Origin: Bursaphelenchus xylophilus
Taxonomy: Eukaryota > Nematoda > Chromadorea > Rhabditida > Aphelenchoididae
Direction: 5' to 3'
Length of the DNA stretch: 64,000 nucleotides
NCBI GenBank assembly: GCA_904066235.2
Contig: CAJFCV020000003.1
Span: 1,116,001 to 1,180,000 of the forward strand
Shown here: positions 42,310-64,000 of the stretch, piece after piece
Position numbering within the stretch: position 1 is the first letter of the stretch
Layout of the letters: each line of letters begins with the position of its first letter
Notes under the pieces: generated by a model
Database searches by the model: none
What the model was told of the DNA's origin: nothing
What the model saw: the letters and a program-made list of their open reading frames with translations, nothing else
Program-made: the position numbers and the translations under genes

Positions 42310-42788
42310 GAATTTACAAATTTTTTTTTTCCTTCTTTGCAAAGAGATGAAAAATCAACTGTTTTTTTATAATTTTCCTTTCAAGAAAACGACTACATTT
42401 CGCTTTATTTGACCTTATAGTCCAATATTTTTGCAAATCAAGATTTCTGTTTGCAATAAAACACCGATAAGCCGTAGAATTGACGGCTTATCACCTCAAA
42501 AAACCATGTTTTTTCTTGTCCATCTGTCAGTCAGCGTTCTGTCTTGCAATAAAGACTTCTGTTCTTCCGCGATTTCGACCCCAGTCCTTTTAATTTCCGG
42601 TCTTGAGGTTCAAGTGCGCGAACGGCGGCCTAATGAGATCGCGGCTTAATTATTTCGGGAGTTATTGGAGGTCCAGGCGGGTTAGATATTTTCTTTACTA
42701 GGACTTTTAGACCCAAACTCATCGTTTTTTTCAATTTTTTTAATATTTTTTTTGAATTTTTTTATTTCGAATAAAAAACAACGCGTCC
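42310..42788. other. AT-rich spacer
   Basis: A short inverted repeat (AATTGACGGCTTATC region, about 42468-42495) is present; nothing else. Confidence 0.5.
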
Positions 42789-43899
42789 CGACATTTCGGG
42801 TCAGGGACAACTCGGGTCGCGACAACTCGGGTCAACGACAACTCGGGTCAACGACAACTCGGGTCGCGACAACTCGGGTCAACGACAACTCGGGTCAACG
42901 ACACTTCGGGTCAACGACACCTCGGGTCAACGACATTTCGGGTCAACGATACCGTTTAATATTTTCGCTTCGGGACTGGAAAAAAGAATTTTTTGGTGAA
43001 TTTGAGAAATTTTTGAAATATTTTCGCTTCGGGACTTGGAAAAAAGAATTTTTTGGAGAGTTTCAACAAATTTTTGAAATGTTTTCGCTTCGGGACTTGG
43101 AAAAAAGAATTTTTTGGTAAGTTTAAAAAATTTTTGAAATGTTTTCGCTTCGGGACTTGGAAAAAAGAATTTTTTGGAAAGTTTCAACAAATTTTTGAAA
43201 ATTTTTCGCTTCGGAAATTGGGAAAAGGATTTTTTGTTCTGAATGTTACAATTTTATTTTAAATAAGGTACGAATGTTATTTCTTTAATTTTTTAGATAA
43301 ATAGTTATTTTAGAGGTAATTGAGGTTTATTTTAAAAATTTTTTGGGAAAATAGTGTTTATAAGCGAGGAGCAAATAAGAAAATCGTTATGTGCATACAA
43401 TCATTACGACTATCTTCTTACTCCACTCTCTGGCACTGTCTGCGCTTAAATCCCGTGCTTCCAGTTAAAAACATAGACAATGGATACGATTTTCTTATTT
43501 ACTCGTCGCTTATACACTATTTTCCGAAAATTTTTTTAAAAATAAACCTCAATTCTGCAAAAATTTCTTTCCCCAGTTCTTGAAGCGAAAACATTTCAAA
43601 AATTTGTTCAAACTCTCAAAAAATTCTTTTTCCCAAGTTCCAAAGCGAAAACATTTAAAAATTTTTGTTCAAATTCTTCAAAAAATTCTTTTTTCCAAGT
43701 CCCGAAGCGAAAATATTTCAAAAATTTCTCAAATTCACCAAAAAATTCTTTTTTTCCAGTCCCGAAGCGAAAATATTAAACGGTATCGTTGACCCGAATT
43801 GTCGTTGACCCGAGGTGTCGTTGACCCGAAGTGTCGTTGACCCGAGTTGTCGTTGACCCGAGTTGTCGCGACCCGAGTTGTCCCTGACCCGAAATGTCG
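42789..43899. repeat. Hairpin A: 1.1 kb element with terminal tandem repeats
   Basis: The left end is about ten units of a 14-16 bp repeat (ACAACTCGGGTCAACG and variants). Next come about four 62-bp satellite units containing TTTTCGCTTCGGGACTTGG, then a unique inner arm. All of this reappears in reverse-complement order on the right, ending CGAAATGTCG at 43899. The unpaired loop is only about 90 bp (around 43390-43480). No coding potential. Shares its 62-bp satellite with the element at 57595-58854. Confidence 0.92.
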
Positions 43900-44490
43900 T
43901 AGCGCCAAAAACAAGACTTAATTTTTCTTATTTTCCGGCCATAGTGCTTTTTTAGACTTCATTTTCTAACCGCCTGTCCATATGCTTTTGATTAATCGAA
44001 TAAAACTTTTTTTTGAGTAATCAATGAAAGCTGAGAAAAACAGGCGAAAAATGATTGGAATTGTAATCTAGCGTTTCTTTTGAAGGGTAGTTGTAAAAAA
44101 AATTTTCCGAGAGGCCTTGAAGCTTGATTTATCATTTTTTACAGTGAAAATGGGATTTTCATTTTTCAATTTCTTTTGACTTTGGTAGTTTTTATACCCT
44201 TTGTTTTTTCGAAATTTATACATTTATTTTACTATTTTTTTATTTTTTTTTTTTTTTATTTAAACTTTACAAATTTATTTTATTATTTTTTTTTACTTTT
44301 TTTTATTCAAAAATACATCTCGTCGTGCAAGTCCAATATCGCTGGTATTCAAGCCATTTATACACCAGGAAGCTTAATTCGCAACATATTATATTATATA
44401 ATAACTTCCAAATTCATCGTTTGAATTTCCTCTTGTAAGCAAATGCTCTCTGATTTCCAAACATGGCCGCAGAATCTCCGTGGTTCTTCT
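43900..44490. other. AT-rich spacer with long T tracts
   Basis: T-rich 44180-44310; no gene seen. Confidence 0.5.
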
Positions 44491-44491
44491 A

Positions 44492-44712
44492 CAGTGGCGG
44501 ATCTCATCAAGTGGCAAAAAACGTATCATTTTGCATCCGGGAAGTATCAAAAATCCATCAAAATACCTCCTTTTCCAAATGAAAAAACTCCGATTTCAAA
44601 GGCGCACTCGTTTTTTTTGTAGTGGCTCTTCGAAATGGAGTTTTTTTGTAGTTGGAGAGGGAGGTATTTTGCTGCATTTTTGATGCCTCCCGGATGCAAA
44701 GTAGTACGGGCA
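44492..44712. repeat. F4 hairpin repeat
   Basis: ACAGTGGCGGATCTCATCAA start, CATTTTGCATCCGGGAAGTA against GCCTCCCGGATGCAAAGTAG near the right end. The right terminus is degraded. Confidence 0.8.
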
Positions 44713-44867
44713 AGCATGGGAAAAAATTCGAGATAAACCGTGCGAAAGTGAAAAAATTTCCAGGCACTTTATGAAAATACTAATGTTAATAACGCATAAT
44801 TAAGGAATTTTGGATGTTTCTGGCCTCGCTTGACCAAAAAAATACTATTTTTTATCTTTTTTATCTG

Positions 44868-45455
44868 ACAAGGAAAGTACTTTTATGGGGGCTCCTACTT
44901 TTTGACGGGACATACCTCAAAAAATCAGAAAAAATGTGCTGATCAAGGATATATAAATCTTAGCTGCCCATTTTGGGTTTTTATGGGTGAAAATGCCCAA
45001 AAACTGGCTTTATTTCCCTACAAAAGGCGCAGGGATTCGAAACAAAAGCGCAGTCGGTCTCTTCCTTCGGAAGAGAGCGGTGTGGCCGAGTGGTTAGTGC
45101 CGTAGTCTGGGAATCAAGAGGGTGGACGCCGCACGGGTTCGATTTCCCTTTTGGGCTGAACCAACGTTTTTTGAAGTTGAAGGTCGGAAAAATAAATTTT
45201 TGGGCCAAGACTGATTCTTTACGCCTTAGAAACTCAATAAACATCATTTTAAGCCAAAACAAAAATTGTAAACCCGTGAAAAATTAGGCGAAAAGGGGTT
45301 CATATAGGACTTTAAGTCAACTTCCGATTGAGTTTTCACCCCTAAAAACCTAAAATGGGCAGCTAAGATTTATATATCCTTGAATTTTTCCTGATTTTTT
45401 GAGATATGTCCCGTCAAAAAGTAGGAGCCCCCATAAAAGTACTTTCCTTGTCAAA
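44868..45455. repeat. Hairpin element with tRNA-like sequence in its loop
   Basis: Left arm about 44870-45020 (ACAAGGAAAGTACTTTTATG, AAATCTTAGCTGCCCATTTT) pairs with right arm about 45300-45453. Loop about 45030-45295. It is a relative of 14458-14930, which lacks the tRNA-like part. Confidence 0.85.
45075..45155 (+). pseudogene. tRNA-Ser-like sequence
   Basis: A box TGGCCGAGTGG and B box GGTTCGATTTCC with a long variable region, as in class II tRNAs. If the anticodon loop is TGGGAAT the anticodon would be GGA (Ser). The acceptor ends (GCGGTG and TTTGGGC) do not pair and the anticodon stem is poor, so it is probably a pseudogene or SINE-like module. Confidence 0.55.
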
Positions 45456-45856
45456 AACTCCCAGACAAACTCAAAAAATACATAGAATACCAGTTTAACA
45501 AACCCTACGCTTGAATATTCAATGTCGCTCCAAGAAAGATCATCAAAAAAAGTGGAGAAGAAACTGGAGCGCGGCCCGAGAGCGCGGCCCAAAAGACCGA
45601 GGGCACTCTTTTCTTTCGTTTTATGCGATTGGATTTCCGCGCTCCTCCCTTCTTCTCCCCTCATTCTTTTCGCTCATCTTGTCCCCATAAGTCTTCGGGC
45701 CATCCGAGTTTTCGGCAAATGGGGGGTTTTTTTGGGTCATGGAGGAGGAAATAAAATAAAAAACAATTTGACGAGCTCTCAAGTGGGTTTATGGGTTCAA
45801 CCCGACTAAGATTTTGTACGTATGCCTCAGGCATGAGGATTTTTGATGATATTAGT
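45456..45856. other. Spacer, no supported gene
   Basis: A 95-codon plus-strand open frame (45522-45809) starts with a basic segment but has no recognised domain. Confidence 0.35.
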
Positions 45857-46479
45857 TTGTCGGGAAAATAATGTGGATTTGGCGCGCCTTGAAATCGCCT
45901 CGCCGCGTTGCGACGGCCAGCCGCGGGTGACGATTTTGACACAAAATATACACATTATTTTCCCGACAGAGCGATAAAAAAGCACCTGTACAGCGAACTC
46001 CCAAACAAATCTAGAGATTTGGCGTGCTACTCCGAGACATTTTACTGCGACAAATACACATTATTTTCCCGACAAACACATAATAAAAATGTAAGCGTAT
46101 TTTTTAAGAGTGTTCTAAGAATATGGAGGAAAGCGTTTTATATCAGTTTGTCGGGAAAATAATGTGGATTTGTCGGGTCTTGTCATCGCGTCATCGCTTT
46201 GCGACGGCGAAGCCGCTGCTGACGGTTTTGCCCCAAAAATACCCATTATTTTCCCGACAACCACATAATAAAAATGTAAGACACCCTTCCCAGGGTATTT
46301 TAAGAACATGGAGAAAGGGTTTTATATCAGTCTGTCGGGAAAATAATGTGGATTCGTCGCGTCTTGTCATCGCTTGGCGACCTCTTCTCATAGCCGAAGA
46401 TTTGGACTGCGACCAGGCGAAACATTTAGTTTTGTCATCCCTGTGACAAATCCACATTATTTTTCCGACCGACTGATAT
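45857..46479. mobile_element. Three core-B MITEs in a row
   Basis: 45857-45973, 46143-46263 and 46328-46479, all with GTCGGGAAAATAATGTGGAT starts, plus a right-terminus half copy near 46062. Copies 1 and 2 are followed by the same motif (ACATAATAAAAATGTAAG, then GTGTTCTAAGAATATGGAG or GTATTTTAAGAACATGGAG). MITE plus flank were therefore duplicated together as a unit of about 185 bp. Confidence 0.88.
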
Positions 46480-46529
46480 ATTCGTACAGTAGATTGCTGA
46501 TAGAATTCAGGGTATTACAGCGAAATTTC

Positions 46530-46680
46530 TGTACAACAAATCGCTGAACACCCAAGAAATTGTTTGTTTTAGAAGGGTTTTTGTTGTTCGGAGGCTTATT
46601 CCGATAAAAAATTCATTTTTGAGATCTTAAAAATTGTTTGTTATAGACAGGTTTTGTTGTATGAAAAGGTTAAAGCGTAT
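46530..46680. repeat. F6 repeat
   Basis: TGTACAACAAATCGCTGAAC to ATAGACAGGTTTTGTTGTAT, inverted halves around GATAAAAAATTCATTTTTGA. Confidence 0.7.
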
Positions 46681-47458
46681 TGTTTTTGCATTCTTTGGTG
46701 GTTAAAATTTTTTTTACTATTCTTTACGTTGATATTTTACAAAGTTTCCTCGCCAAATCTCCCCTAGAAATTTATTTTTATCTTCAAGATAATTGAAAGA
46801 ATTTTTACCGGGCTTTGTAATAAATTTTGCATCTAGTTACTGCTTACATAATTACAACCAATTTTAGCCCCCCTGAGAATCCAGAACCAAGTAAAAGTGG
46901 GAACATGGCCAGCGGAAAGTGAGTTGTCACACCGCACTTGGAGAAGTTCTAATCAAAAATTGTAACCTCCCAATTTCCCCTTTTTTCAGCGGCTCTCCCC
47001 GTTCCTCAGGCGACTACGAAGTCTCAGCCGAAGAGCTGGTCGATTTGATGAGTCTGCGCGGAGTTGAAGCCAAAACACATATCGACACTGAATTTGGAGG
47101 GATCTCGGGGCTCTGCCGAAAGCTCAGGACTGATCCTTTTCAAGGCATTCTATCAAATGAATGCGAATTATTGAAACGACAGGAACTTTATGGGAAAAAT
47201 AGATTGCCCGCAGGAAATGCCCCGGAATTTGGACAAGCGTTGAAAGAGACGGCTTTGGTGAGTAAATTAAATGTCCCTGACAAAAGATTTGGTGAGAAAA
47301 TTAAACGTCCCTGAAACCGTAAAGGTTTGCAAAAATTCAAAGGTTGCATATAAAGTTTTTCTCGAGGGCCTACAAAATTTTGAATATCAAAATTTTTTTG
47401 CCATCCCCAAGATGTTCGATGTAATTTTTCGAGGAGTAAATCCAAAGCTAATAGCGTG

Positions 47459-47802
47459 TCAGTCTGTCGGGAAAATAATGAGCACAATGTCGCGGTGTAA
47501 GTCGAAAATGTCATTCCGCTTTTTGCCTCTTGGAGTAAAAAGTGCGCTGAAAGTGCATCAAATGATATGATTTTTTGAGTATGGTGTTAGGTTGTCCCAG
47601 GACGTTTCTATGCCGAATTAAGAGGTTGTAGGCCCAGCGGTTCCCGAGATACAAGGTGGAAAGGAAATTTTGTCAACGAGTATAATTCTGACATGCTGAA
47701 ACGAAAATCATTTTGATTTTGCCGCGAAGACAATTCATTTTTTCGGCGGCGATGCCATTTTCTACGCGACAGAGTGTTCATTATTTTCTTGATAGACTAA
47801 TA
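47459..47802. mobile_element. Core-A MITE split by about 190 bp, PMCA intron 2
   Basis: Left part 47459-47505 (CAGTCTGTCGGGAAAATAAT). Right part from about 47705 (CATTTTGATTTTGCCGCGAA) ends GTTCATTATTTTCTTGATAG. The sequence between belongs to neither core and is not otherwise recognised. A lone terminus follows at 47866-47895. Confidence 0.75.
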
Positions 47803-48362
47803 CCTCTCCGAAAGTCTTCGCAACGTGCACACATGTCTATAGGCGTATGTGTCAATCTCGCGAAAAATATTTTATTATTTTCCCGACAGACTGATATCTA
47901 TAACAAAAACACAAATCTCGTTCTACGACGAGCTTAAGCGTTGCATTGAGGCGCTCCTTTGTCTTGTGTTCCATGCATTCTAAGCTAATACTCAATTACC
48001 TTTTCCCTACAGTCCCTCCGACCAATCATCCTCGGCATGGCGGCTATCGGATCAACAGCAGCCTGCTCTTCCTACTTCGTCAATAACCGGAGGATGGTTC
48101 GAGCGGCCGAGGCCGCCACTCTGGTTGTTATTTTTGCGGCTGTTGTTGTGTTTGTTGGAGCCTTTGTGCGGTTTCAAAAACTCCGAAAACAATACGTAAT
48201 CGACGAATCGGCCAAGAAAAAATCATGGGCAGAATTGTTTTCCAGTCAATGCCAATGTATTCGGAATGGGAAACAGACGAAGGTGGATGCTCAAGAGCTC
48301 GTGTGTGGAGATGTAATGGAAATCGGGAAAGGTAGGTGATGTGCAGTTAATTTTTCGAATAC

Positions 48363-48516
48363 CAGTCTGTCGGGAAAATAATGTGCATTCTGTGGCATTG
48401 AAAATTGCATCGCCGCCGAGGAAATGAATTGTGTTGCGGCAAAGTAAAGTTGCTTTTCATTTCAGCGACACGATCGGCGCGGTGACATTAGGCTAATTAT
48501 TTCCCCGACAGACTGG
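48363..48516. mobile_element. Core-A MITE in PMCA intron 3
   Basis: CCAGTCTGTCGGGAAAATAA to TAATTATTTCCCCGACAGAC, starting 30 bp after the exon 3 donor. Confidence 0.88.
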
Positions 48517-49299
48517 TAGGCGTTGCAAGGCTTGTTGAAACGATGTTTCTCAATTCAAATGTTGATATGGCGAAAGAAAATTTTGAAGGCTTGCAAGTTG
48601 CAACAAGGCCGACGCGAGCCGGTTTTTCAGCTCTAAAAAGCCAACCTATATCCGGAGGGATGCCGTATTTTCATCTGGCTGGGCCCACTTTTTACCGGCA
48701 GAGATTTCGAGCTCGAGATTTTTATTTTGCCCGAGGCAAATTTTTTTTTTAATTTTGCAAAAAAAAATTTTTTTTTTGTAATTTGGCCTTGTCTTATTGT
48801 TAGCCAATTTAATATTGAAGACCATAACTTTGTGAAACCCTGAAACTTCAGTCTTTGATTTGGTTATTTTTGATTTATAAACATCAAGAAATTAAAAGGT
48901 TAAATCAACAAATCAACTTTATAACCTCAACCCTAATATTTGCTCGTTCATTGCGATCAAAAAACTCATTTGTTTAGTCTTTCTTTTCCCTCAATTCCAC
49001 TTCACGAAATTTTTCGAACTCGTAATTGAACATGTTTGCCGCTTCAGGGGATCGCTTGCCCGTGGACGGGGTCCTGCTGCAGGCGTGGGACCTGCGTGTC
49101 GACGAGACCAACCTGAACAAGCATTTGGACAAACAGATTGTGTTGCGAAAGTCGCGCGATCAGGACCCATTGCTGTTCGCGGGCACTCAAGTTGTGGAAG
49201 GGAACGCCAAGGTGCTTGTGACGGCGGTGGGCGGCCGAATTCAACTGGAGCGGCCCGACCCAAGCCCTCCGGCAACGCCGAGTCCGCGATGAGAAAATT

Positions 49300-49465
49300 T
49301 TCGAATTTTTTTTTTTTTAAATTTATGAAAATTTTTGAAATTTTTTTCAAATTTTCGATTTTTTTAAATTTTTTTGAAATTTTCGAAAATTTTCAATTTT
49401 TTTTTATTTTTTTGAATTTTTCGAAAATTTTCGATTTTTTTTTTTATTTTTTTGAGATTTCCGAA
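49300..49465. repeat. T-rich low-complexity tract abutting the PMCA truncation
   Basis: Runs of TTTTTTGAAATTTTCGAAAA type begin about 15 bp after the stop codon. The break in PMCA homology coincides with this tract. Confidence 0.8.
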
Positions 49466-49485
49466 GATTTGATTACTGTAAGTCT

Positions 49486-49650
49486 CTGTACAACAAACCC
49501 CCATACAACAAAACATGTCTATAACAAACAATTTCGGAGGTGTCAAGGGCCAATTTTAGGCCAAAACAAAACTCTGCACAACAAAAGCCTTCTATAACGA
49601 ACCATTTTTTTCGCTCCCTTACGATTCGTTGCACACAGGCTTGACTGCAA
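49486..49650. repeat. F6 repeat
   Basis: TCTGTACAACAAACCCCCAT, AACATGTCTATAACAAACAA, and right part GATTCGTTGCACACAGGCTT; the clearest F6 copy. Confidence 0.75.
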
Positions 49651-49976
49651 AAATTCGCCACGAAAATGCCTCAAACTAATATTATAACCATATGAAAGTA
49701 ATATTTTATTCAATATTTTGTTTTTTCCGAAGCCATCAACATATGTGACGTTACTAATAATTAGTTTTGGTGCTGATAAAATAAAGTGTTTAAAAACTGA
49801 ACTTGGAGACTAATTGGGTTATGTTCCTAGAGCGGAGTAACTATTATATTCCGACAAAAAATATAATCTTAAAACGTGCAATACAGGTGTTTACTTGTAA
49901 AAATGTCCTTTTCTTCAATTTTCTGATCTTATTTTTAAACCATTCCGCCCGTAGATTGAGCTTTGAATATGTAGGC
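49651..49976. other. AT-rich spacer
   Basis: Nothing recognised on either strand. Confidence 0.5.
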
Positions 49977-50312
49977 TGTCGGAAAAATAATGAGCACAAT
50001 GTCAGTGGACTGATCGTGTTGCTAAAAGCAACCTGATTTTGTCGCGAAGACAACTCATTTTTTTTTTTTGAGAGGCCCGACAACCCAGTAACGAGACAAG
50101 ACGAGAGCCCAAGAGGCATGTGATTTATTCAGTGGAGAGGAGGCCTTTTATAGGGAAGCCCCACGTAGGAGAGTACAATCAAATTTTAATAAATGCAGAT
50201 CGTTCCTCGTGGGAAAATCTTCGAAGCTCGGTCGTTCCGCCTCACAATTTTCTCGGCAGCGATGCGATTTTCGATGCGGCAGAGTGCTCATTACTTTCCG
50301 GACAGACTGATA
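49977..50312. mobile_element. Core-A MITE split by a solo LTR-1
   Basis: Left part 49977-50068 (GCTGTCGGAAAAATAATGAG to GAAGACAACTCATTT). Right part 50247-50312 (ATTTTCTCGGCAGCGATGCG to TTACTTTCCGGACAGACTGA). The two halves rejoin into a normal copy. Confidence 0.88.
50069..50246 (-). mobile_element. Solo LTR-1, about 178 bp
   Basis: On the minus strand it starts TGTGAGGCGGAACGACC and ends GTTGTCGGGCCTCTCA, giving TG...CA ends, with TATAAAAGGCCTCC and AATAAATCACATGCC inside. The right flank is ATTTT and the left flank is ATTTT expanded to a T run, consistent with a 5-bp target duplication. Confidence 0.75.
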
Positions 50313-50339
50313 GGCTGTTCGGGCCGACACAAAATCGAT

Positions 50340-50890
50340 CGATACGGGGCGTAGGGCAGGTGTATACTCAAAGAAGCGTTGTAGGAAGTGCCTACGAGGC
50401 CTGGCAAAGCCGTTGGATAGTCGGCGGACGCTCGGCGAAGGCTTGGCGGACGCAAGGCAAAGGCTTACAATACGACCATTTTTTCCAGTTTTAGCTATTG
50501 GTAACCTTAGTTTTCTTGACCTTGAGCTACTGTAACATATAAAAGATCGGAATTATCTCGGCGGAGACCTGGCGAAGAGCTCTGATATTTCCACTTTTCT
50601 AATTCTGACTATTAATAACGTTAGTTTTCTTTACCCTGGGTAATTGTAACATATAAACTACAAAATTTGGAGCAAAAAATGGAAAATCCGTAACTTTTCT
50701 CTAAAGATTATTAATGTGAGTACATGCAAAATACCTCAAAATATTTAGTTGATAAGTTATCTTAAGACCCGATCAATCTTGTGATTGCTACTAACTGAGC
50801 CTTCTACTAGCTCCTCCATGAATACAACGACGAACCGACGCCTTGCGTAGTATCGTTGACCCGAACTGTCGCGGACCCAAAAAGTCGTAG
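50340..50890. repeat. F5 repeat, longest copy, plus a hairpin-A end fragment
   Basis: GATACGGGGCGTAGGGCAGG, GTGCCTACGAGGCCTGGCAA, TTAGTTTTCTTGACCTTGAG, ACATATAAAAGATCGG, ending near GAATACAACGACGAACCGAC. At about 50852-50890 a single ATCGTTGACCCGAACTGTCG plus GTCGTAGCTCCG matches the terminal repeat of hairpin A at 43790-43905. Confidence 0.7.
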
Positions 50891-52005
50891 CTCCGAAAGG
50901 TTCATGTTTTGGCCGACACGTTACTGTTGACTGCCAGCCATCAAATTTTGTTTTCTCAGCTGCCATTACAAAACAAAATTACATGTAATTACATATCTCT
51001 TTCCCCGAAAAAACCATCTTCCCCCAAACCACAATATATTTTGGCATTGGGCACAGACGACTGCCGTACACGTCTACTCGGTAAATATAGCTGCTTTTCG
51101 ATGCAGACATGCTTCTTTCCTCCCATATTTGCGCAAAATCCGGGCAAACAAAAAAACGTAAATTCGAAAAATTGAACAGGGTTTGAAACGCCTTCTTTCC
51201 TGATAAAATCCGCACAAAACTTTTTTCCGATCTTCTCGAACAGCGGGAGGGCTTTAGCGGAACGTTTTGAGGTCTGGCTGGGATATAAATATAAAAAAAT
51301 CGTGAGTGATCGGTTCGAAAAATAATGTTATATTTTGTGGGGTTTGTGCATGGGAAAACGGGGGTGATTTCCATTTTGATTATTGGATATTTTTGCAGTT
51401 TGTTTTTGAAAATCTTTATTCTTACTTATCACATTTTTTGGGAGGGACCATTTGCAGTTATCGACCAAAAAATGATATTTTTTCATAGGGGGAGTGCTCA
51501 AATTGCGACTCTCAGATTTTTATGAAACTTGTTACAAATTTAGAAAAAGCTTTTCAAAGACATATGCTAGACTCGAAGCTCCCAGTTTACCGAAAAAATC
51601 AAGTTTTCACATCAAAAGATGGCAAAAATGTGGCAATTTTTGAGAATTTTGACATGTTTCGTCTCTATTTCTAACGTGGAAAGTAATGCTTCCACACCAT
51701 AATATCTAGGTATGACCTCCGTTTTTGGAGCATACTGTGGTATACATAATGACAGCTTAGGCAGGGGCGTAGTTGGGTGGAAAATTAATGCCAGCAATAG
51801 CCAGAATCCGAAGGACCGTCATACTGTAGGTCACCGCCAAGTCTCCGCCAAGCGTTCGCCGAGCATCCAACGGCTTTGCCAAGCCACGTAGGCACTTCTT
51901 ACAACCTTTTTTGGGTATTCACCTGCCCTACGCGTCGTATCGATGCTATGTTGACCTTTTTGCTTTGGCGAAACCGAAAATTATTATTTTTCTTCGATGC
52001 AAGTG
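50891..52005. other. Spacer with repeat scraps, no gene
   Basis: F2 start at about 51490-51560 (AATTGCGACTCTCAGATTTT); reverse F5 piece about 51830-51950 (CGCCAAGTCTCCGCCAAGCG). The rest is unassigned. Confidence 0.5.
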
Positions 52006-52462
52006 TAAAATTGGGATAATCGAGGGTGCTTATTTCGAAAATGACATTCATGTTTTCGATAGTTACTTTTATCCTTAAGTAGTACTGTAAGGTAGTAATT
52101 TTTTGACTTTTTTTTATAAATACTCGATTTAGGGGTTTTCGATGGTGCTGATTTCGAAAATGACATTCATTTTTTTGATAGTTACTTTTATCCTTAAGTA
52201 GTACTGTAAGCTAGTAATTTTTTGACTTTTTTTTATAAATACCCGATTTAGGGGTTTTCGATGGTGCTGATTTCGAAAATGACATTCATTTTCACAATCT
52301 TCTGATTTCAAAGCAGCACCACCGAAAACCCCCAAATCGGGTATTCATGAGAAAAATTCAAAAAATTACTGCTTTACAGTGCTACTTTTAAGTAAAGAAA
52401 AAAAGTAACTATCAAAAAAATTAATGTCATTTTCGAAATCAGCACCCTCGATTATCCTAATT
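52006..52462. repeat. Hairpin with internal 121-bp tandem duplication
   Basis: GATAATCGAGGGTGCTTATT at the left pairs with the complement of CAGCACCCTCGATTATCCTA at the right. The left arm contains about 2.5 tandem units (GGGGTTTTCGATGGTGCTGA, TTTATCCTTAAGTAGTACTG). The module GGTGCTGATTTCGAAAATGA also occurs in hairpin C at 63035 and 63150. Confidence 0.85.
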
Positions 52463-53050
52463 TCACAAACTGTTTTATACATATTTGGTGACTCGGCGCA
52501 AACCTGGCAGGCGTTGAAAGTCTGTAGAAAAAATTGTTTGAACACTTTGCTTGCCAAATTTTATACTCTTAATCTTTTGCGTAACATAATTCTTGTTTGG
52601 CTTTCAAGTACTCGCGACTTTGTTTTTTGCACTTTTCCCACGGAAAAATTTAATTTTCCACTTTCACTCAACCACGTTATAATTGTAAAAACACTTCAAT
52701 ATTATCGCATCCTTTAGGCCATTCAAGAAGTCATTATCAGTGTCATGTCCGCTTTGATGTTATAACTCGACGAATGCCACTGCTCGCCTTTGATTTATGT
52801 GACATTGAAGTGGTAATCATTGGGTGGAAGGCTTCAAAGTCTCAACGATTTGTGGAACCCGTGTTCGCCGAGAGCAAAGATGCAGAACAAGTATTTGACG
52901 TTGTTTTTGGGTGGTAAGTTTTCAAACATTTTGAATTTTTGCTTTGATACGAATGAATAATAAAATAAAGCCACGTATTTATAACACCGCAGGTGTGCTT
53001 TCGAATCGCCTATCATAAATATTGTTTGCCAGTATGAGCGCAATGTTTCT
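52463..53050. other. Spacer, nothing recognised
   Basis: AT-rich; short frames only. Confidence 0.5.
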
Positions 53051-53053
53051 GGA

Positions 53054-53580
53054 TATCAGTCTGTCGGGAAAATAATGTGTGTTTGTCATAGAAAAAGTTT
53101 CGCCTTGCCGCAGCTCAAATCGCAAGCCGCGGAAAACCGTCGCAAAGCGATGATGGGCGATTCCAAGGCGCGACGAATCCACATTATTTTCCCGACTGGT
53201 CGATGTCACCAAAAAGAAAACCTTCCATGAGGCGTATGGGTGATCGAAATTAGGTTTAAACGAAACTTTTTTGGTGACTTCCACATTTTTTACCGCTATA
53301 TTCACGTCGCAGCCCTAAAAATCGGAATTTTTAGCACCAAATCTCTAAAAATTGGTTCTAAGGATTCCTGACACCATTTATTATAGGCGGGTTTCGTCGT
53401 ACGAAAGTTTGTTGTATAGAGGTCTCAATATCAGTCTGTCGGGAAACTACTGTGGATTTGTCGCAGCGAAATATCTCGTCTCGTTGGGAAATTTTCATCT
53501 CCAGCCGCGGTAGCCGTCGCAAAGCGATGATAAGCGATTTCAATGCGTGATGAATCCACATTATTTTCCCGACAGACAAA
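53054..53580. mobile_element. Two core-B MITEs with an F6 scrap between
   Basis: 53054-53206 (ATCAGTCTGTCGGGAAAATA) and 53429-53580 (ATCAGTCTGTCGGGAAACTA to CACATTATTTTCCCGACAGA). 53375-53428 is an F6 piece (TTATAGGCGGGTTTCGTCGT). Confidence 0.85.
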
Positions 53581-53935
53581 TAAAAAATTTCGGGCGAAAC
53601 TTTTTTAACACTGCCAAAATTCAGGCCAGAACATTTTTTTGGTGTATTTCACAAAAAAAAAAAATCAAGAACAGCTTTTCACCCGATTTTTTTGACAAAA
53701 CGTTTAGAGGATCCATTGTTTGTTCCTGATTTGTAAAATTGAAAATATTCGTTTTGTAATTTTTGAACGCCTTTTATGACCCAAGAGAACAAAGCGAAAC
53801 AATCGCTAAGAAATTCAGAAGACGCTTCCGTCATTTTTGTTTACCTTGCGGAGCATTGCGGCTCAGCACGCTTTGTTTACTGTGTGAAATGGTCTCGTAT
53901 TTATTACATACCAGATTTTTTGCAAGTTATGAACT

Positions 53936-54330
53936 CTGTCGGGAAAACGATGAGCACTCTGTGGCGCACGTCAAAGAAAAAGTGAAAAAACAAGGAGCCC
54001 CGGACCATTGATTTTTGACGAAATCTCGCTGAATTATCGAGTCACAAAAGAAAACTTTCTCAGAGAACTTCGAGAAAAATGTTTTTTCGAAGAGGAAAGT
54101 AATTGTTCAAGCTCGATAATTCTGTGGAACTTCGCAAAAAATCAATGATCCGAGATTCCTTGTTTTTTTCAATTTTCTGAAAGAATTGTTTTGACGTGTG
54201 GCGTCGCAAATCGCATCGCAACGCGTTGAGAAAATGAATTGTTTTCGCGGCAAAATCAAATTGCTTTTCACTTCAGCGACGCGATCGGCGCAGCGACAGA
54301 GCGCTCATTATTTCCCCGAGACACTTTTAA
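53936..54330. mobile_element. Core-A MITE split by a hairpin of about 190 bp
   Basis: MITE parts CTCTGTCGGGAAAACGATGA (left) and GTCGCAAATCGCATCGCAAC to GCTCATTATTTCCCCGAGAC (right). The inserted hairpin (about 53985-54175) has arms AAACAAGGAGCCCCGGACCA and TGATCCGAGATTCCTTGTTT and an inner pair GAAATCTCGCTGAATTATCG / CGATAATTCTGTGGAACTTC. Confidence 0.75.
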
Positions 54331-54749
54331 GATTGTTAAAATATAATAATTTGCAAAAAATCGCATTTAACGGTATCCTGAAAGCATAAAGATAAGATTG
54401 CTTACAAGTGCCGAGCTTTTTTTTATTCCGCACAAGGCTGACGTGTATTTCGAACGCTCAAAAAAAGAGGCAAAGAAAGCAGCGTGAAGGCCGACCTTTT
54501 ATTTGTTCGCAACTTTTTTCGCCGTTTACTTGAGGTAACTTTTACTTGAGCTGACATTTTGACCCCAACAGAAACCGCAGAGCAACAGTTTTTGCAGACA
54601 TTTTTTTGTTTACGTCGCTGAAAACATTGGATTACAGCGTGTTATTTTATTTATCGCTGAGCCTTCGACCGCTGTCAAAACAAAAAACATCTGTTTTTGC
54701 TGCAAATCCTGTTACTCTGTAGCGTTCAACACTATAGAAAATATAAATA
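54331..54749. other. Spacer, nothing recognised
   Basis: No exon-like sequence on either strand. Confidence 0.5.
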
Positions 54750-55232
54750 AGTCTGTCGGGAAAATAATGTGGATTCGTCGCGCATTTGGAATCGCCCATC
54801 ATCGCTTTGCGACGGCTAGCCGCGGATTTTGGAGGTTTGTCTCGACGAGGCGGGAAATTTTGCCGCGACAAATCCACATTATTTTCCCGACAGACTGATG
54901 ATAAAACTTTTGTTCAACAAACTCCCCTACGGCAAAACCTGCCTATAATAAACGGTGTCAGAAATTCCAAAAGTCAATTTTTAAGCCAAAACCTCCGTAG
55001 AACGACACCCCTCTACAACAACAAAAAATTTTTCGGTCCCTTGTAAACCGTGGCACATATGTTTGAATGTATCAATCTGTCGGGAAAATAATGAACGTGC
55101 TGTTGCATGGAAAATCGCATCGCCGCCGAGAAAATGAAGTGTTTTCGCGGCAAAATCAAATCGCTTTTCACTTCAGCGACGCGATCGGCGCAGCGACATT
55201 GTGCTCATTATTTTCCCGACAGACTGATATAA
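54750..55232. mobile_element. Core-B MITE, F6 repeat, core-A MITE upstream of apyrase
   Basis: 54750-54900 (AGTCTGTCGGGAAAATAATG, with CATCATCGCTTTGCGACGGC intact, the best core-B example). F6 at about 54908-55065. Core A at 55070-55232 (ATCAATCTGTCGGGAAAATA to ATTATTTTCCCGACAGACTG). Confidence 0.9.
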
Positions 55233-55318
55233 TACATAATTCTCACCAATATCAACCGCCTGCATCACCAGACAGCAGTAAAACTCGCATTTTATTTTCA
55301 GTTGCTCTCGGCCTCACA

Positions 55319-57479
55319 ATGATCATAGTGACCCTGGTCATTATCATCCTGTACTCCGAGAAACAGCTCGCCGATGCTTGGGCCGCATTGCCGACCACCA
55401 GTCGGCCGGCATTCCAAGCCACTGTCAGTAATGGGACCTACAGTGTGCCTTTTGTCATGATCTCGGACCAAGATAAACGCTCAAAAATTCAGAAAGGATT
55501 GTACGTCGCCCCCTCGGTCCGGGGCTATCTGAATTACAATTTGGTAAGTAACTATGCGTTTAATTTTTGCTGTGCGGCGCTGGATGAAAACTCGTTAAGA
55601 ATCTGTCGGGAAAACTGTGAGCGCAAAGTCGCTGCCCCATTCGCGTCGCTGAAGTGGAAAGCAATTTGATTTTGCCGCGAAGACAATTAATTTTCTCGGC
55701 AGCGATGCGATTCTCGATGCGTCAGAGTGCTCATTATTTTCTCGACAGACTGATAAGAGTTGAAATTGGGTATTCCGAAGGCTTAAAATTCATTTTTTTC
55801 ATAGAAATTTATTTATTTCATGTGCTTACAATCGAAAAAGTTTTTTGTGTTTCTCACCCACTCTCCTCATTTTACGAATTCTCTCGCAAAAAATTGCCTT
55901 TCTAACAGGCAATTTTTTGTCGAGAAAATGAATTGTCTTCGCGACAAAATCAAATTGCTTTTCACCTCAGCGACACGATTGGCGCAGCGACATTGTGCTC
56001 ACTACTTTACCCACAGAATTGATAGTAAATAATATTGCCCATATTTCCTCCACTGATATGTAACCACTGAATGCATGGCTTCAATTTTCAGGAGCTCTCA
56101 AAGTTTCATGTGAACTACGACTCAGTCTACAACTACACTTCCAATTACGGGTTCGCCGACAAAGGAATGGAACTGTCGGACCTCAAATACTACAAGGGAT
56201 ACCTAATAGCGCCGGACGACAAAACAGGAATTCTTTTCAAGTCAGTTGACGCTATTTACTCCACCTTTTTATGGAAAACAAAATAATCAAGATGTTTTTT
56301 TCAGAATGACCGGAACAAAGGCCATTCCTTGGGTGATAAATGCGGATGGCGATGGGGAAAGTGATATGTGTAGGTTTGGAAACCCACTTTTATGAATTGT
56401 ACATTTACTTTTCCAGCATTCAAAGCCGAATGGATCACGGAGAAAGACGATCTTCTGTATGTGGGAAGTCATGGAACAGAACAGGTCATGAGGAGAAATG
56501 AGACAATTATGGATGAAAATCGAATGTGGATCAAGGTAAACACAGGGTAAAAAGGCGAGAAATTTCTCGAAAAAACAACTTTTTTTCATGATTTTGACAT
56601 GTTGTATTTTACAACTTGTTTTTGAGTGCACAGTGCCGAAATGAAAATTTTCGCTTTTCGCACTGTGCGGTTTTCAAAACGCAGTAAAAACTTGATAAAA
56701 ATAAAGAGTACGTATTTACGAAACCCCATGGCTAAACTGAATGTGCTACTCTCAGCGATGACCGTATTTTAGAGACATTTTTTGACTGCACTGTGCGAAA
56801 ATTAAAGAAAAAATTATTTTAATTATTTTGCATAGTGCGTGTTTCAAAAAAATTGAACTCTGTGACAGAGAAAACTAAGCTATGACTAACAGCTATAGAC
56901 CATAATCAGCCCATATTTCCAGACAGTCAACTCTCAAGGCCATGTTGAACATCAAAATTGGAAGAACAACTACATGGCTCTTCGCGACGCTGTGAACGTC
57001 ACGTTCCCCGGCTATATCGCGCATGAAGGCTGCCAATGGTCAAAACTACACAAGAAATGGTTCTTCCTGCCGCGGAGGCTGTCTCACGAGGTGTTCAACC
57101 CATTTCAGGACGGGTTCCGCTCAACCAACGTGCTCATGATTGCCGAAGAGGATTTCTCACAAATAGAGGTCATAGAAATCGGCGCCGTAGTGCCCGAACG
57201 AGGCTATAGTGCCTTTCAGTTCGTCCCTGGTAAGACACACCGAAAGGCATTTGCTGCGGCGTATTTTACAATCGTTTTTATATTATTCATGCTTCAGACA
57301 CGAATGACACCATAATTTTTGCTCTAAAGACAGTGGAAGCTCAAGGAATGCCGTTGGAGACGTACGCATCTGTCTTTGACATAAAAGGGAACATTCTCCT
57401 TCCGGATGTTGTTGTTCCGTTCGCGTATAAACTCGAAGGCGTCGAATTTTTCGACTTCACGCAACAAGATTGGTTGTAA
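55319..57479 (+). CDS. apy-1: Calcium-activated nucleotidase (apyrase, CANT1 family), 345 aa
   Basis: Exons 55319-55543, 56092-56240, 56305-56360, 56417-56535, 56923-57229 and 57298-57479 give 1038 nt in one frame. A short hydrophobic N-terminal segment (MIIVTLVIIILY) suggests a type II membrane anchor. The lumenal CANT1 domain shows GMELSDLKYY, WVINADGDGE, FKAEWITEKDDLLYVGSHG, NWKNNY, EGCQWS, KWFFLPRR, GAVVPERGYSAFQFVP and YKLEGVEFFDF. CANT1 enzymes hydrolyse UDP and GDP in the ER/Golgi with Ca2+, supporting glycosylation. The exon 3 donor is the GTGATA at 56361, not the GTGTAG at 56368, because only the former keeps frame. TTTTCAG lies 17 nt before the ATG, compatible with trans-splicing or with a further upstream exon for the cytoplasmic tail. 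Poly(A) signal at 57518. The symbol is by family resemblance. Confidence 0.93.
55600..56026. mobile_element. Core-A MITE and truncated core-A MITE in apyrase intron 1
   Basis: 55600-55757 (AATCTGTCGGGAAAACTGTG to CATTATTTTCTCGACAGACT) and, in the same intron, about 55908-56026 (TCGAGAAAATGAATTGTCTT to GTGCTCACTACTTTACCCAC). Confidence 0.85.
56620..56865. repeat. F8 repeat pieces in apyrase intron 4
   Basis: GTGCACAGTGCCGAAATGAA with TTTTCGCACTGTGCGG, and later GACTGCACTGTGCGAAAATT and TTTTGCATAGTGCG. Confidence 0.6.
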
Positions 57480-57594
57480 ATAGTTTAAACTGACTATACG
57501 AAGTATTAATTATAAGCAATAAAGGCGTGATAAATCTTATAAATCCGGTTTGAAAGCAGATTTGCAATTTTATGTCGAAATTTTCCCGTTCTCG

Positions 57595-58854
57595 GAGGAT
57601 AGGTTACCCCTAACAAATAGGTTACCCCAGCGGATAGGTTACCCCACCGGATAGGTTACCCCAAGTTTCGGATAGGTAACCTCGGAGGATAGGTTACCCC
57701 GAGGATAGGTTACCTGAAAAAAATTTTTTTTGAAATGTTTTCGCTTCGGGACTTTGAAAAAAAGGATTTTTTGCGAAATTTGAAAAAATTTTGAAATGTT
57801 TTCGCTTCGGGAGTTGGAAAAAAAAGATTTTTTGTGAAAATTGAAAAGAATTTGAAATGTTTTCGCTTCGGGAGTAGAAAAAAGGGTGTCTGACTGAATA
57901 TTAACTGTGGTGCCGCCAGCACTAAAATTTTGTCTAAAACCAATGGTACCACCTGGTACTATATAGTACCACGTGTTTTTGGGCTCTACTAAGCACTAAA
58001 CCATCACCATTACTGCCTTACGGCCAAATTTTTACTTCTCACAAAACAGTACCAGTTGGTACCATATAGTACCAAGTGTTAAAACGTGTTTTTGGGTTCT
58101 ACTAAGCACCAAGCCAACGCCATTACCGCCTTACGGCCAAATTTGCACCTCGTACTAAATAGTACCAGGTAGTACTATTTAGTACCAAGTGTTAAAAATG
58201 TGTTTTTTAAGCAGTACTAGGCACCAAAACAACACCATTAACGTCTAAAAGTGTTATAAGTCGAAAAAATTTCAAAAAGAATCCCTAAAGGTAGTAAAGT
58301 AACAGAAACCCGGTTTTCATATTCAGTCAGCTCGAAAACATTTCAAATTTTATTCAAATTTCACAAAAAAATCCTTTTTTTCCAGGTCCCGAAGCGAAAA
58401 CATTTCAAATTTTATTCAATTTTCACAAAAAATCCTTCTTATTAAACTCCCGAAGCGAAAACATTTAAAAATTTTTTCAATTTTCACAAAAAATCGTTTT
58501 TTTCCAAATCCCGAAGCGAAAACATTCCAAATTTTATTCAAATTTCACAAAAAATCGTTTTTTTCCAAGTCCCGAAGCGAAAACATTTCAAATTTTATTC
58601 AATTTTCACAAAAAATCCTTCTTATTAAACTCCCGAAGCGAAAACATTTAAAAATTTTTTCAATTTTCACAAAAAATCGTTTTTTTCCAAGTCCCGATGC
58701 GAAAACATTTCAAAAAAAATTTTTTTCTTTTTTTGGTAAGGGGTAACCTATCCGTGGAGTAACCTATCCGGTGGGGTAACCTATCCTCCGAGTTATGTGT
58801 TTTTTGGGGTAACCTATCCGGTGGGTAACCTATCCTCGGGGTAACCTATCCTCC
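57595..58854. repeat. Hairpin B: 1.26 kb element with GGATAGGTTACCCC ends
   Basis: The left end has about seven GGATAGGTTACCCC-type units (57595-57715), then the satellite with ATGTTTTCGCTTCGGGA (57725-57895), a loop of about 430 bp, then the satellite in reverse (58325-58720, about six units of about 60 bp) and reversed terminal units to 58854. The satellite is the same as in hairpin A; the terminal repeat is not. Confidence 0.92.
57942..58255. repeat. Tandem repeat of about 112 bp with TACTATATAGTACC palindromes (hairpin B loop)
   Basis: About 2.7 units, each with GGTACTATATAGTACCA-type palindromes, GTGTTTTTGGGTTCTACTAA and CCATTACCGCCTTACGGCC. A related array is in hairpin C at 63075-63680. 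Confidence 0.88.
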
Positions 58855-58869
58855 CCAAATCGAATTTTC

Positions 58870-58975
58870 CGATTTTAGGCGAAGTGTCACAAAAATATTG
58901 GATTGTTGACACTTCGCAACATTTTCTTCAGAACAAAGAAATATTCTTCTTATTTCTTTGTTCTTAAGAATACTC
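58870..58975. promoter_or_regulatory. Two adjacent inverted repeats upstream of the E2 gene
   Basis: GCGAAGTGTCA pairs with TGACACTTCGC across about 20 bp, and AACAAAGAAATATTC is followed at once by ATTTCTTTGTT. They lie about 320-420 bp before the start codon. Promoter function is speculative. Confidence 0.35.
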
Positions 58976-62665: not shown

Positions 62666-62905
62666 AAAAGTGATTTGCACTGTGCGAAAAAAGCCAGGGT
62701 GCGAGCGACAGCCCAGAAAAGCCTATTGCACCGTGCAAAATGCGAGAAATTGCACAGTGCAAAGTGCCCTTTTGTTTTCGCACAGTGCATGTCGCTGAAT
62801 TAACATTTGGCGTTTGCACTGTGCGAAAAAAGCCAGGGTGCGAGCGACAGCCCAAAAAAGGCCAATTGCACCGTGCAAAATGCGAGAAATTGCACAGTGC
62901 AAAGT
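62666..62905. repeat. Two F8 repeats in tandem
   Basis: Each has GCACTGTGCGAAAAAAGCCA, GGGTGCGAGCGACAGCCC, TTGCACCGTGCAAAATGCG and GAAATTGCACAGTGCAAAG. The second is broken by hairpin C at 62906. Confidence 0.88.
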
Positions 62906-63856
62906 GGAATTCCATCGATTGCGACCCCGCATCGATTGCGACCCAGCATCGATTGCGACCCAAAATGGGGTAAAGCGACCCCGGGATGAAAATTCTTTGA
63001 TTCTCTTCGGGAAAAACTTGCTTTAGGGGTTTTCGAGGGTGCTGATTTCGAAAATGATGTTCATTTTTCCTCTAGTACTACATAGTGCTGTCTGATACTA
63101 TATAGTACGAAGTGAAAATATCGCTTTTGACGTTAAATGCTCGATTTAGGGGTTTTCGAGGGTGCTGATTTCGAAAATGATGTTCATTTTTCAACTAGTA
63201 CTACATAGTACGGTCTGATACTATATAGTACGGAGTGAAAATATCGCTTTTGACGTTAATGGTGTTGTTTTGATGCTTAGTACTCTTCAAAAACACGTTT
63301 TAAAGACTTGGTGCTATATAGTACTATCTGATACTATGTAGTACGAGGTGTAAAGTTGGCCTCTAGGCGTTTGTGGTGTTGTTCTGGTGTTTAGTACGCC
63401 TATTTTTACTTCGTACTATATAGTATCAGACAGTACTATATAGCACCAAGTCTTTAAAACGTGTTTTTGAAGAGTACTAAGCATCAAACCAACACCATTA
63501 ACGTCAAAAGCCATATTTTCACTTCGTACTATATAGTATCAGAGAGTACTAGATAGCACCAAGTCTTTAAAACGTGTTTTTGAAGAGTACTAAGCATCAA
63601 ACCAACACCATTAACGTCAAAAGCCATATTTTCACTTCGTACTATATAGTATCAGACAGTACTATGTAGTACTAGAGGAAAAATGAACATCATTTTCGAA
63701 ATCAGCACCCTCGAAAACCCCTAAAGCAAGTTTTTCCCGAAGAGAATCAAAGAATTTTCATCCCGGGGTCGCTTTACCCCATTTTGGGTCGCAATCGATG
63801 CGGGGTCGCAATCGATGCGAGGTCGCAATCGAGCGGGGTCGCAATCGAAGGATTCC
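62906..63856. mobile_element. Hairpin C: 951 bp element with 8-bp target duplication
   Basis: Starts GGAATTCCATCGATTGCGAC and ends in the reverse order ATCGAAGGATTCC. TGCAAAGT flanks it at 62898-62905 and 63857-63864, and the host F8 repeat reads on across it. Inside: terminal CATCGATTGCGACCC units (three to four per end), the GGTGCTGATTTCGAAAATGA module, and an array with TACTATATAGTAC palindromes, all mirrored about position 63390. No coding potential. Confidence 0.9.
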
Positions 63857-64000
63857 TGCAAAGTGCCCTTTTGTTTTCGCACAGTGCGTGTCGCTGAAGT
63901 GCTTTTTGGTTTTTGCACTGTGCGAAAAAAGCCAGGGTGCGAGCGACAGCCCAATAAAAAAAGCCTATTGCACCGTGCAAAATGCGAGAAATTGCACAGT
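63857..64000. repeat. F8 repeats continuing past the window edge
   Basis: TGCAAAGTGCCCTTTTGTTT resumes the F8 copy split by hairpin C, followed by the start of a third unit (TTTGCACTGTGCGAAAAAAG). Confidence 0.85.

What the first reader, a model, noticed from the sequence alone, without database searches (positions are those of the whole stretch)
42789..58854. Two giant hairpins share one inner satellite but carry different terminal tandem repeats
Hairpin A (42789-43899) and hairpin B (57595-58854) are built alike: an outer short tandem repeat, then about 60-bp satellite units containing TTTTCGCTTCGGGA, then a loop, then everything mirrored. The satellite is clearly the same, but the outer unit is ACAACTCGGGTCAACG in A and GGATAGGTTACCCC in B. 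Terminal sequence has been swapped while the inside is kept, which ordinary MITEs do not do. Together with hairpin C this may be an undescribed class of modular hairpin element whose ends are arrays, perhaps multiple transposase or protein binding sites.
Basis: seen in the sequence. Interest (0 to 1): 0.78.

Follow-up and report, generated by a model that had tools for sequence, protein, structure and literature searches.

The report
Foldback transposons that swap terminal arrays
The giant hairpins are jumping-DNA elements of the pine wood nematode whose interiors have moved between unrelated kinds of repeat-array ends, and the ends, not the interiors, go with how they cut their target.

Summary
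Both hairpins are real and multi-copy. A is 42782-43906, flanked by an exact 8-bp target duplication; B is 57587-58861, 9 bp with one mismatch. They are non-autonomous foldback elements of Bursaphelenchus xylophilus. Each arm is a 7-bp end motif, a 14-17-bp tandem array, a 60-bp satellite, then the loop: the layout published for Tm1 Mutator/Foldback elements. Of 63 elements with both ends, A ends have exact 8-bp duplications in 29 of 32; B ends 9 bp in 16 of 20; D ends, a third array, 9 bp in 9 of 11. One D-ended 9-kb element codes a MULE transposase. The satellite is not generic: 49 of 52 sampled loci lie near such ends. Loop B (95-99% alike across end types) rides on A, B and D ends; on A ends it has 8-bp duplications in 9 of 9. 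Nine chimeras have A-type satellite outside, B-type inside; five still hold an intact B end. I read this as nested insertion, then satellite recombination. The window's own A and B share only an old, diverged satellite; their loops differ. New variant of a known kind.

The parts
42774..42781 (+). 8-bp target duplication AAAAACAA, left of A
   Evidence: exact match to 43907-43914
42782..42788 (+). 7-bp end motif A1 (CGCGTCC)
   Evidence: 12-mer CGCGTCCCGACA in 31 of 32 A-ended elements
42789..42953 (+). outer array a, left arm of A (16-bp unit ACAACTCGGGTCAACG)
42958..43236 (+). satellite sA, left arm (60-bp units)
43237..43558 (+). loop A
   Evidence: present in 23 of 32 A-ended elements
43559..43777 (-). 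satellite sA, right arm
43783..43899 (-). outer array a, right arm of A
43900..43906 (-). 7-bp end motif A2 (GGCGCTA on the minus strand)
   Evidence: 12-mer GGCGCTACGACA in 30 of 32
43907..43914 (+). 8-bp target duplication, right of A
57578..57586 (+). 9-bp target duplication AAATTTTCC, left of B (one mismatch to the right copy)
57587..57593 (+). 7-bp end motif B1 (CGTTCTC), followed by GGA
   Evidence: 12-mer CGTTCTCGGAGG in 18 of 20 B-ended elements
57594..57714 (+). outer array b, left arm of B (GGATAGGTTACCCC)
57728..57883 (+). satellite sB, left arm (61-bp units)
57884..58332 (+). loop B, with a TAGTAC-rich 113-bp satellite related (80-84%) to the interior of hairpin C
58333..58714 (-). 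satellite sB, right arm
58740..58854 (-). outer array b, right arm of B
58855..58861 (-). 7-bp end motif B2 (GATTTGG on the minus strand)
   Evidence: 12-mer GATTTGGGGAGG in 16 of 20
58862..58870 (+). 9-bp target duplication GAATTTTCC, right of B
62898..62906 (+). 9-bp target duplication TGCAAAGTG, left of hairpin C
   Evidence: exact match to 63857-63865, read
62907..63856 (.). hairpin C: 7-bp ends GAATTCC / GGAATCC, outer array CATCGATTGCGACCC, interior satellites related to loop B, to the D satellite and to the worn hairpin at 51965-52467
63857..63865 (+). 9-bp target duplication, right of hairpin C
51965..52467 (.). fourth, degenerate hairpin: interior of F-ended elements (88% to L084 over 179 bases), terminal arrays not found

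Best explanation
A and B are non-autonomous foldback DNA transposons of the Mutator kind (Tm1-like). The working ends are a 7-bp asymmetric motif plus a short tandem array; each end type (A, B, D; C and F by the same layout) is mobilised by a transposase that reads it. The satellite arms and the loop are passive interior. Interiors pass between end types when one element inserts into the satellite of another and recombination between same-facing satellite units deletes what lies in between. The chimera then transposes with its new ends. Shown: element boundaries, target duplications, duplication length that follows the ends, chimeras with two stages, one loop on three end types, a D-ended element coding a MULE transposase. 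Inferred: that the arrays are transposase binding sites, the recombination route and its order, and that other transposases serve A and B.
For: Exact duplications: A 8 bp in 29 of 32; B 9 bp in 16 of 20 (2 more at 8); D 9 bp in 9 of 11 (1 more at 8). Flanks paired across different elements matched over 8 bp or more in 2 of 992 (A), 8 of 380 (B), 0 of 110 (D). Among carriers of loop B, A-ended copies have 8 bp in 9 of 9; B- and D-ended have 9 bp in 23 of 29, 8 bp in 3, none exact in 3 (Fisher on the exact ones p=3e-6; some copies are local duplicates, so p is optimistic). Loop B is 95-99% alike between end types. Its tree (32 of 38 carriers) has D as one group (82/80) and B rows on both sides (3 of 26 inner branches firm). 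In 17 of 17 chimera arms with two or more classified units, A-type satellite lies outside B-type, one inner unit unclear. Five chimeras share one junction, satellite core then intact B1 end, 211 bp inside the A end. L081 (9 kb) has D arrays at both ends, duplication TCATTTTTG, and the best MULE hit of the genome (PF10551); the matching 680-aa protein record is P0001. Joined flanks of one B element match C3:16988-17156 end to end at 92% without the element.
Against: No transposase with A or B ends was found: twelve frames from seven long A- or B-ended copies gave no Pfam match above cut-off, and the D transposase is single-copy. No copy of the predicted first step (a whole B element with both ends inside an A element) was seen. 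D-ended copies join loop B through AT-rich junctions, not clearly through the satellite, so their route may differ. Elements were gathered mainly by similarity to A and B, so frequencies are not genome-wide. Six of 29 B- or D-ended loop-B copies lack an exact 9-bp duplication.
Confidence: 0.82

Rival explanations
1. One family: A, B and D descend from one element whose terminal arrays drifted apart in place by unequal crossing-over; interiors were inherited, not transferred.
For: The satellite subtypes of A and B are homologous and old (87% consensus identity), so some shared ancestry of the interiors is likely.
Against: Loop B is 95-99% alike on three unrelated arrays, too recent for three arrays and three pairs of 7-bp motifs to have drifted apart. 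Five chimeras hold an intact B1 end inside an A element.
Confidence: 0.08
2. Cross-superfamily chimeras: A ends belong to a transposase of another superfamily with 8-bp duplications (hAT-, P- or Merlin-like; lengths recalled), while B and D ends are Mutator.
For: Consistent 8 bp against 9 bp; A lacks the GGA found after the 7-bp motif in B and F; of the six MULE hits the nearest listed A-like end is 14 kb away (C4:842480, lists cut at 100).
Against: A shares the layout of asymmetric 7-bp motif plus array with B, C, D and F; Tm1 duplications are reported at 8-10 bp (PMC3169594, passage read).
Confidence: 0.25
3. A generic genome satellite that happens to form inverted arrays.
For: 1039 matches to a 22-base stretch of the unit genome-wide at up to 3 mismatches.
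Against: Of 52 loci formed by the 100 listed exact matches, 49 lie within 1.5 kb of a listed A, B or D end; random positions 1.6%.
Confidence: 0.02
4. Assembly artefact.
For: Long palindromes are hard to assemble.
Against: Dozens of places with exact duplications and uninterrupted paralogous sites.
Confidence: 0.01

Closest known systems
Tm1 Mutator/Foldback family of Meloidogyne (PMC3169594; abstract and passages read)
   Same: asymmetric 7-bp end motifs, then (here in B and F) GGA, then a tandem array of about 14 bp with variable copy number; mostly 9-bp duplications (8-10 seen); a MULE transposase in one member; many short non-coding copies; nested insertions
   Different: different motif sequences; here several array types share interiors, and a second satellite layer forms the arms; A has 8-bp duplications; no FLYWCH match by Pfam here; the histone-hairpin motif of Tm1 was not looked for
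Galileo of Drosophila mojavensis (PMC3573991; passages and section 7 read)
   Same: long, internally repeated inverted ends; copies with ends of one subfamily and interior of another (98% interior, 77% ends)
   Different: P superfamily, 7-bp duplications; exchange among related subfamilies; here the end arrays are unrelated in sequence and differ in duplication length
Tetris of Drosophila virilis (PMC4079207; passages read)
   Same: foldback with outer domain, tandem repeats of about 220 bp in the arms and inner domain; 8-10-bp duplications; a satellite born in a foldback
   Different: no swapping of array types in the passages read; in the sample the satellite here stays with its elements
MULEs with multiple long inverted ends in plants (PMC3310237; passages read)
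   Same: an extra set of Mutator ends inside an element that still transposes
   Different: extra ends of the same family; the authors find no duplication at inner ends and leave recombination open

Membership tests
Mutator/Foldback, Tm1-like | 7-bp asymmetric motifs at the two ends | tested here: met
   dominant 12-mers in 31 and 30 of 32 (A), 18 and 16 of 20 (B), 11 and 11 of 11 (D); C read
Mutator/Foldback, Tm1-like | GGA directly inside the 7-bp motif | tested here: inconclusive
   present in B and F; absent in A, C, D
Mutator/Foldback, Tm1-like | ends built of a tandem array of about 14 bp | tested here: met
   units 14-17 bp
Mutator/Foldback, Tm1-like | about 9-bp target duplications (8-10 reported) | tested here: met
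   B 9 bp in 16 of 20, D in 9 of 11; A 8 bp in 29 of 32
Mutator/Foldback, Tm1-like | MULE transposase in an element with the same ends | tested here: inconclusive
   met for D; none found for A or B
Mutator/Foldback, Tm1-like | FLYWCH domain (Phantom) | tested here: inconclusive
   Pfam gives only a weak RYYR-CCHC match, E 0.2
Galileo / P superfamily | 7-bp target duplications | tested here: not met
   8 or 9 bp
Helitron | no target duplication (recalled) | tested here: not met
hAT | 8-bp duplication with hAT-type ends and transposase (recalled) | tested here: inconclusive
   A has 8 bp; no hAT transposase search was made

The most novel reading that the evidence does not exclude
A shared pool of interiors circulates among at least five unrelated end types (A, B, C, D, F), with recombination in shared satellites as the exchange device. 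A hairpin interior thereby switches from one transposase to another, perhaps across superfamilies (8-bp against 9-bp cutting), and outlives the death of any one transposase.
Probability: 0.3. Interest if true: 0.75.

Novelty: new variant of a known kind. Interest (0 to 1): 0.56.

Why it matters
It is a natural swap experiment. The same loop on different ends takes the target-duplication length of its ends, which points to the end motif and array as what recruits the transposase. It leaves a stepwise record (parents, nested intermediate, cleaned-up product) of how non-autonomous elements can change transposase, and offers a testable reason why foldback elements in unrelated superfamilies carry tandem arrays in their arms.

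Tried and rejected
Coding copies with A or B ends: frames of long A- and B-ended copies were listed (L061-L067 and the region L069). Twelve of them, from L061-L067, were scanned with Pfam: nothing above a family cut-off (best: gag E 0.019, Arcadin E 0.064). The rest were only looked at.

Long A elements by pairing end lists by eye (100 shown of 244, 251 and 306 matches, overlapping sets): none longer than 5 kb; one pair of 2.3 kb (C4:1380514-1382786) was not fetched.

Generic satellite and artefact: rejected.

Arm homogenisation: the two arms of one element are hardly more alike than arms of different elements (A 0.779 vs 0.738, B 0.676 vs 0.661, D 0.647 vs 0.654), so no claim is made.

Rfam (gathering threshold) and tRNA scans of the window: nothing.

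Papers: foldback + nematode + terminal inverted repeats + chimeric, none; Bursaphelenchus xylophilus + foldback, two, seen in the listing only; a 2024 survey of nematode transposons names MULE once, foldback, Mutator and MITE never (passages). I saw no report of these elements; most subscription journals are not held.

Not used: structure prediction, fold search, and scans of the viral, metagenome and species-genome collections.

Dropped before counts: five loop-B carriers with short best matches, and one with a 60-base match, left out of the tree and (32 of 38 used); elements with an end within 12 bp of a locus edge; elements over 3.5 kb from the satellite and arm counts. The joined-flank output was cut in part.

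Full report
WHERE IT IS. The window is C3:1116001-1180000 of an assembly of 78,253,340 bases in 8 contigs. The transposase found below matches a protein named Bursaphelenchus xylophilus on a contig of 12,633,386 bases, the length of C5. A 2024 survey gives 78.2 Mb for that species (PMC11118728, passage read).

OBSERVATION. Hairpins A and B are there as described, far beyond chance: 481 and 222 bits of self-complementarity against at most 43.6 in 100 shuffles each. True boundaries are 7 bp further out: A 42782-43906 with AAAAACAA on both sides, B 57587-58861 with AAATTTTCC/GAATTTTCC. Hairpin C, 62907-63856, has TGCAAAGTG on both sides. A fourth, worn hairpin lies at about 51965-52467.

ANATOMY. 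Each element is: 7-bp end motif, different at its two ends; array of 14-17-bp units; 60-61-bp satellite; loop; mirror image. A ends are CGCGTCC / GGCGCTA, B ends CGTTCTC / GATTTGG, and a third type, D, found on other copies, CACGAAG / GATTGAG with unit CGGAAAGGTCCGCTGTG. C has GAATTCC / GGAATCC. A fifth type, F (GGAACTG / CGGAGTT, unit GACGATTGGGGAAAAA), was read on two elements that came up as interior-only matches of hairpin C; their duplications read as 9 bp, but 8 bp with a one-base-longer end is possible. Interiors of C, F and D are related at 76-93% in stretches, C and loop B at 80-84%: older links than the loop-B swaps below.

TARGET DUPLICATIONS. 63 different elements with both ends were found in the 81 loci then held plus the window; 60 of the loci were brought in by similarity to A or B, so this is no random sample. 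Exact duplications: A 8 bp in 29 of 32 (two more 8 bp with one mismatch, one 9 bp with one mismatch); B 9 bp in 16 of 20, 8 bp in 2, none exact in 2 (one is the window's B); D 9 bp in 9 of 11, 8 bp in 1, none in 1. Some are not independent: L006/L007 have near-identical flanks, and the two B elements of L003 stand head to tail with the same 9-bp duplication. Uninterrupted sites: joined flanks of the B element in L066 match C3:16988-17156 end to end at 92%, C4:334364-334527 at 89%, C1:6269150-6269309 at 85%. Local spanning matches exist for several A elements and one D element, many of them inside repeats.

SATELLITE. The pattern TTTTCGCTTCGGGACTTGGAAA with up to 3 mismatches occurs 531+508 times, reversed control 0. 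The 100 listed exact matches fall in 52 loci on C1-C3; 49 lie within 1.5 kb of a listed A, B or D end (random 1.6%). Two subtypes, 87% alike in consensus: A-ended copies with loop A carry one (97 of 97 units), B-ended the other (95 of 97, 2 unclear), D-ended the B type (37 of 43, 6 unclear), leave-one-element-out.

SWAPS. Loop A occurs in 23 of 32 A-ended elements; loop B in 9 of 32 A-ended, 19 of 20 B-ended and 10 of 11 D-ended. Between end types loop B is 94.8-99.1% identical over aligned bases, gaps left out (means: A-B 97.3, A-D 96.3, B-D 96.7; within B 97.2; 32 of 38 copies); counting gaps the lowest pair is 87.6%. So copies on different ends are almost as alike as copies on the same ends. 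The tree is shallow: D copies form one group (82/80), A copies need 4 changes, B copies lie on both sides, so B looks like the source (3 of 26 inner branches are firm, root at midpoint). All nine A-ended loop-B copies have exact 8-bp duplications; of 29 B- and D-ended ones, 23 have 9, 3 have 8, 3 none exact. Duplication length follows the ends (Fisher 3e-6 on exact ones, ignoring relatedness).

ROUTE. In each chimera arm with two or more classified units (17 of 17; one innermost unit unclear), A-type satellite lies outside and B-type inside (chimeras were not in the training set). Five chimeras (L068, L070-L073) read: A1 array, A-type satellite ending TTCGGGACTTG, then the intact B1 end CGTTCTCGGAGG with one or two b units, B-type satellite, loop B, then in the right arm B-type and A-type satellite and the A2 array (in L068 the right array is interrupted by an insertion, and L070 has one classified unit there). 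Whole-genome positions put the B1 end 211 bp inside the A1 end in the five. This is what a B element inserted into the left satellite of A leaves after recombination between same-facing satellite units of the right arms. The other four (L018, L019, L023, L067) lack the B end, as a second such deletion in the left arm would leave. The nine duplications differ from each other, so chimeras moved after they formed. The order of steps is inference.

TRANSPOSASE. L081 (C5:367690-376730) holds an 8,969-bp element with D ends, D arrays, a satellite of about 119 bp in both arms, and TCATTTTTG on both sides. It codes a MULE transposase: PF10551 E 2e-11 on one exon, best of six hits in the genome at E up to 0.1; protein record P0001, 680 aa. 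A second frame has weak protease-like matches (ULP1/C48 and ElaD/SseL-like), below cut-off. P0001 finds this copy and one weak match elsewhere. So D ends are tied to Mutator; A and B ends are not yet tied to any transposase.

COMPARISON. The layout is that of Tm1 of root-knot nematodes (PMC3169594): 7-bp asymmetric motifs, GGA, array of about 14 bp, 8-10-bp duplications, MULE. By layout I file the elements as Tm1-like Mutator/Foldback; for A the 8-bp length and missing transposase keep membership open. Interior exchange is known from Galileo among related subfamilies (PMC3573991). What I did not see in print is one interior on several unrelated array ends, with duplication length following the ends and a surviving nested intermediate.

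VERDICT. It is a new variant of a known kind, with an unusually legible record of how it arose.

Noticed in passing
window 51965-52467: Worn hairpin with the interior of F-ended elements (88% to L084) but no terminal arrays found.
   Followed up: partly
window, 18 + 20 places from about 6430 to 55202: A short abundant repeat with ends like GGGAAAATAATGTGGA (up to 2 mismatches, no control run), many in facing pairs about 90-130 bp apart: probably a small MITE.
   Followed up: no
window 20922-21338: Array of 42-bp units (GAGTCAAGTCTTCCCC...) between gene-like frames; similar words lie beside or inside some A elements (L015, L068).
   Followed up: no
window 38829-38873: Degenerate CTAAGCCTAAA repeats, like interstitial nematode telomere repeats (TTAGGC, recalled).
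   Followed up: no
window, several ORFs: Several ORFs read by eye like glutathione S-transferases, a local gene cluster; no search made.
   Followed up: no
L012 1231-1310: Another possible end array, unit like CATTCCGGAAGTGTC, beside a D element.
   Followed up: no
L003 138-2703: Two B elements head to tail, each flanked by CAAAATTTT.
   Followed up: partly
genome: A sister set of A ends with CGACTTTT instead of CGACATTT; two pairs span about 450-490 bp.
   Followed up: no
L065 818-1642: 275-aa open frame inserted in a B element; only a sub-threshold Pfam match.
   Followed up: partly
C1:58195-60139, C1:4041446-4043272, C1:7341647-7343369, C2:7389105-7390868, C2:9819750-9821681: D-ended pairs of 1.7-1.95 kb, each with CCGCCG in at least one end: a possible further D subfamily, not fetched.
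   Followed up: no
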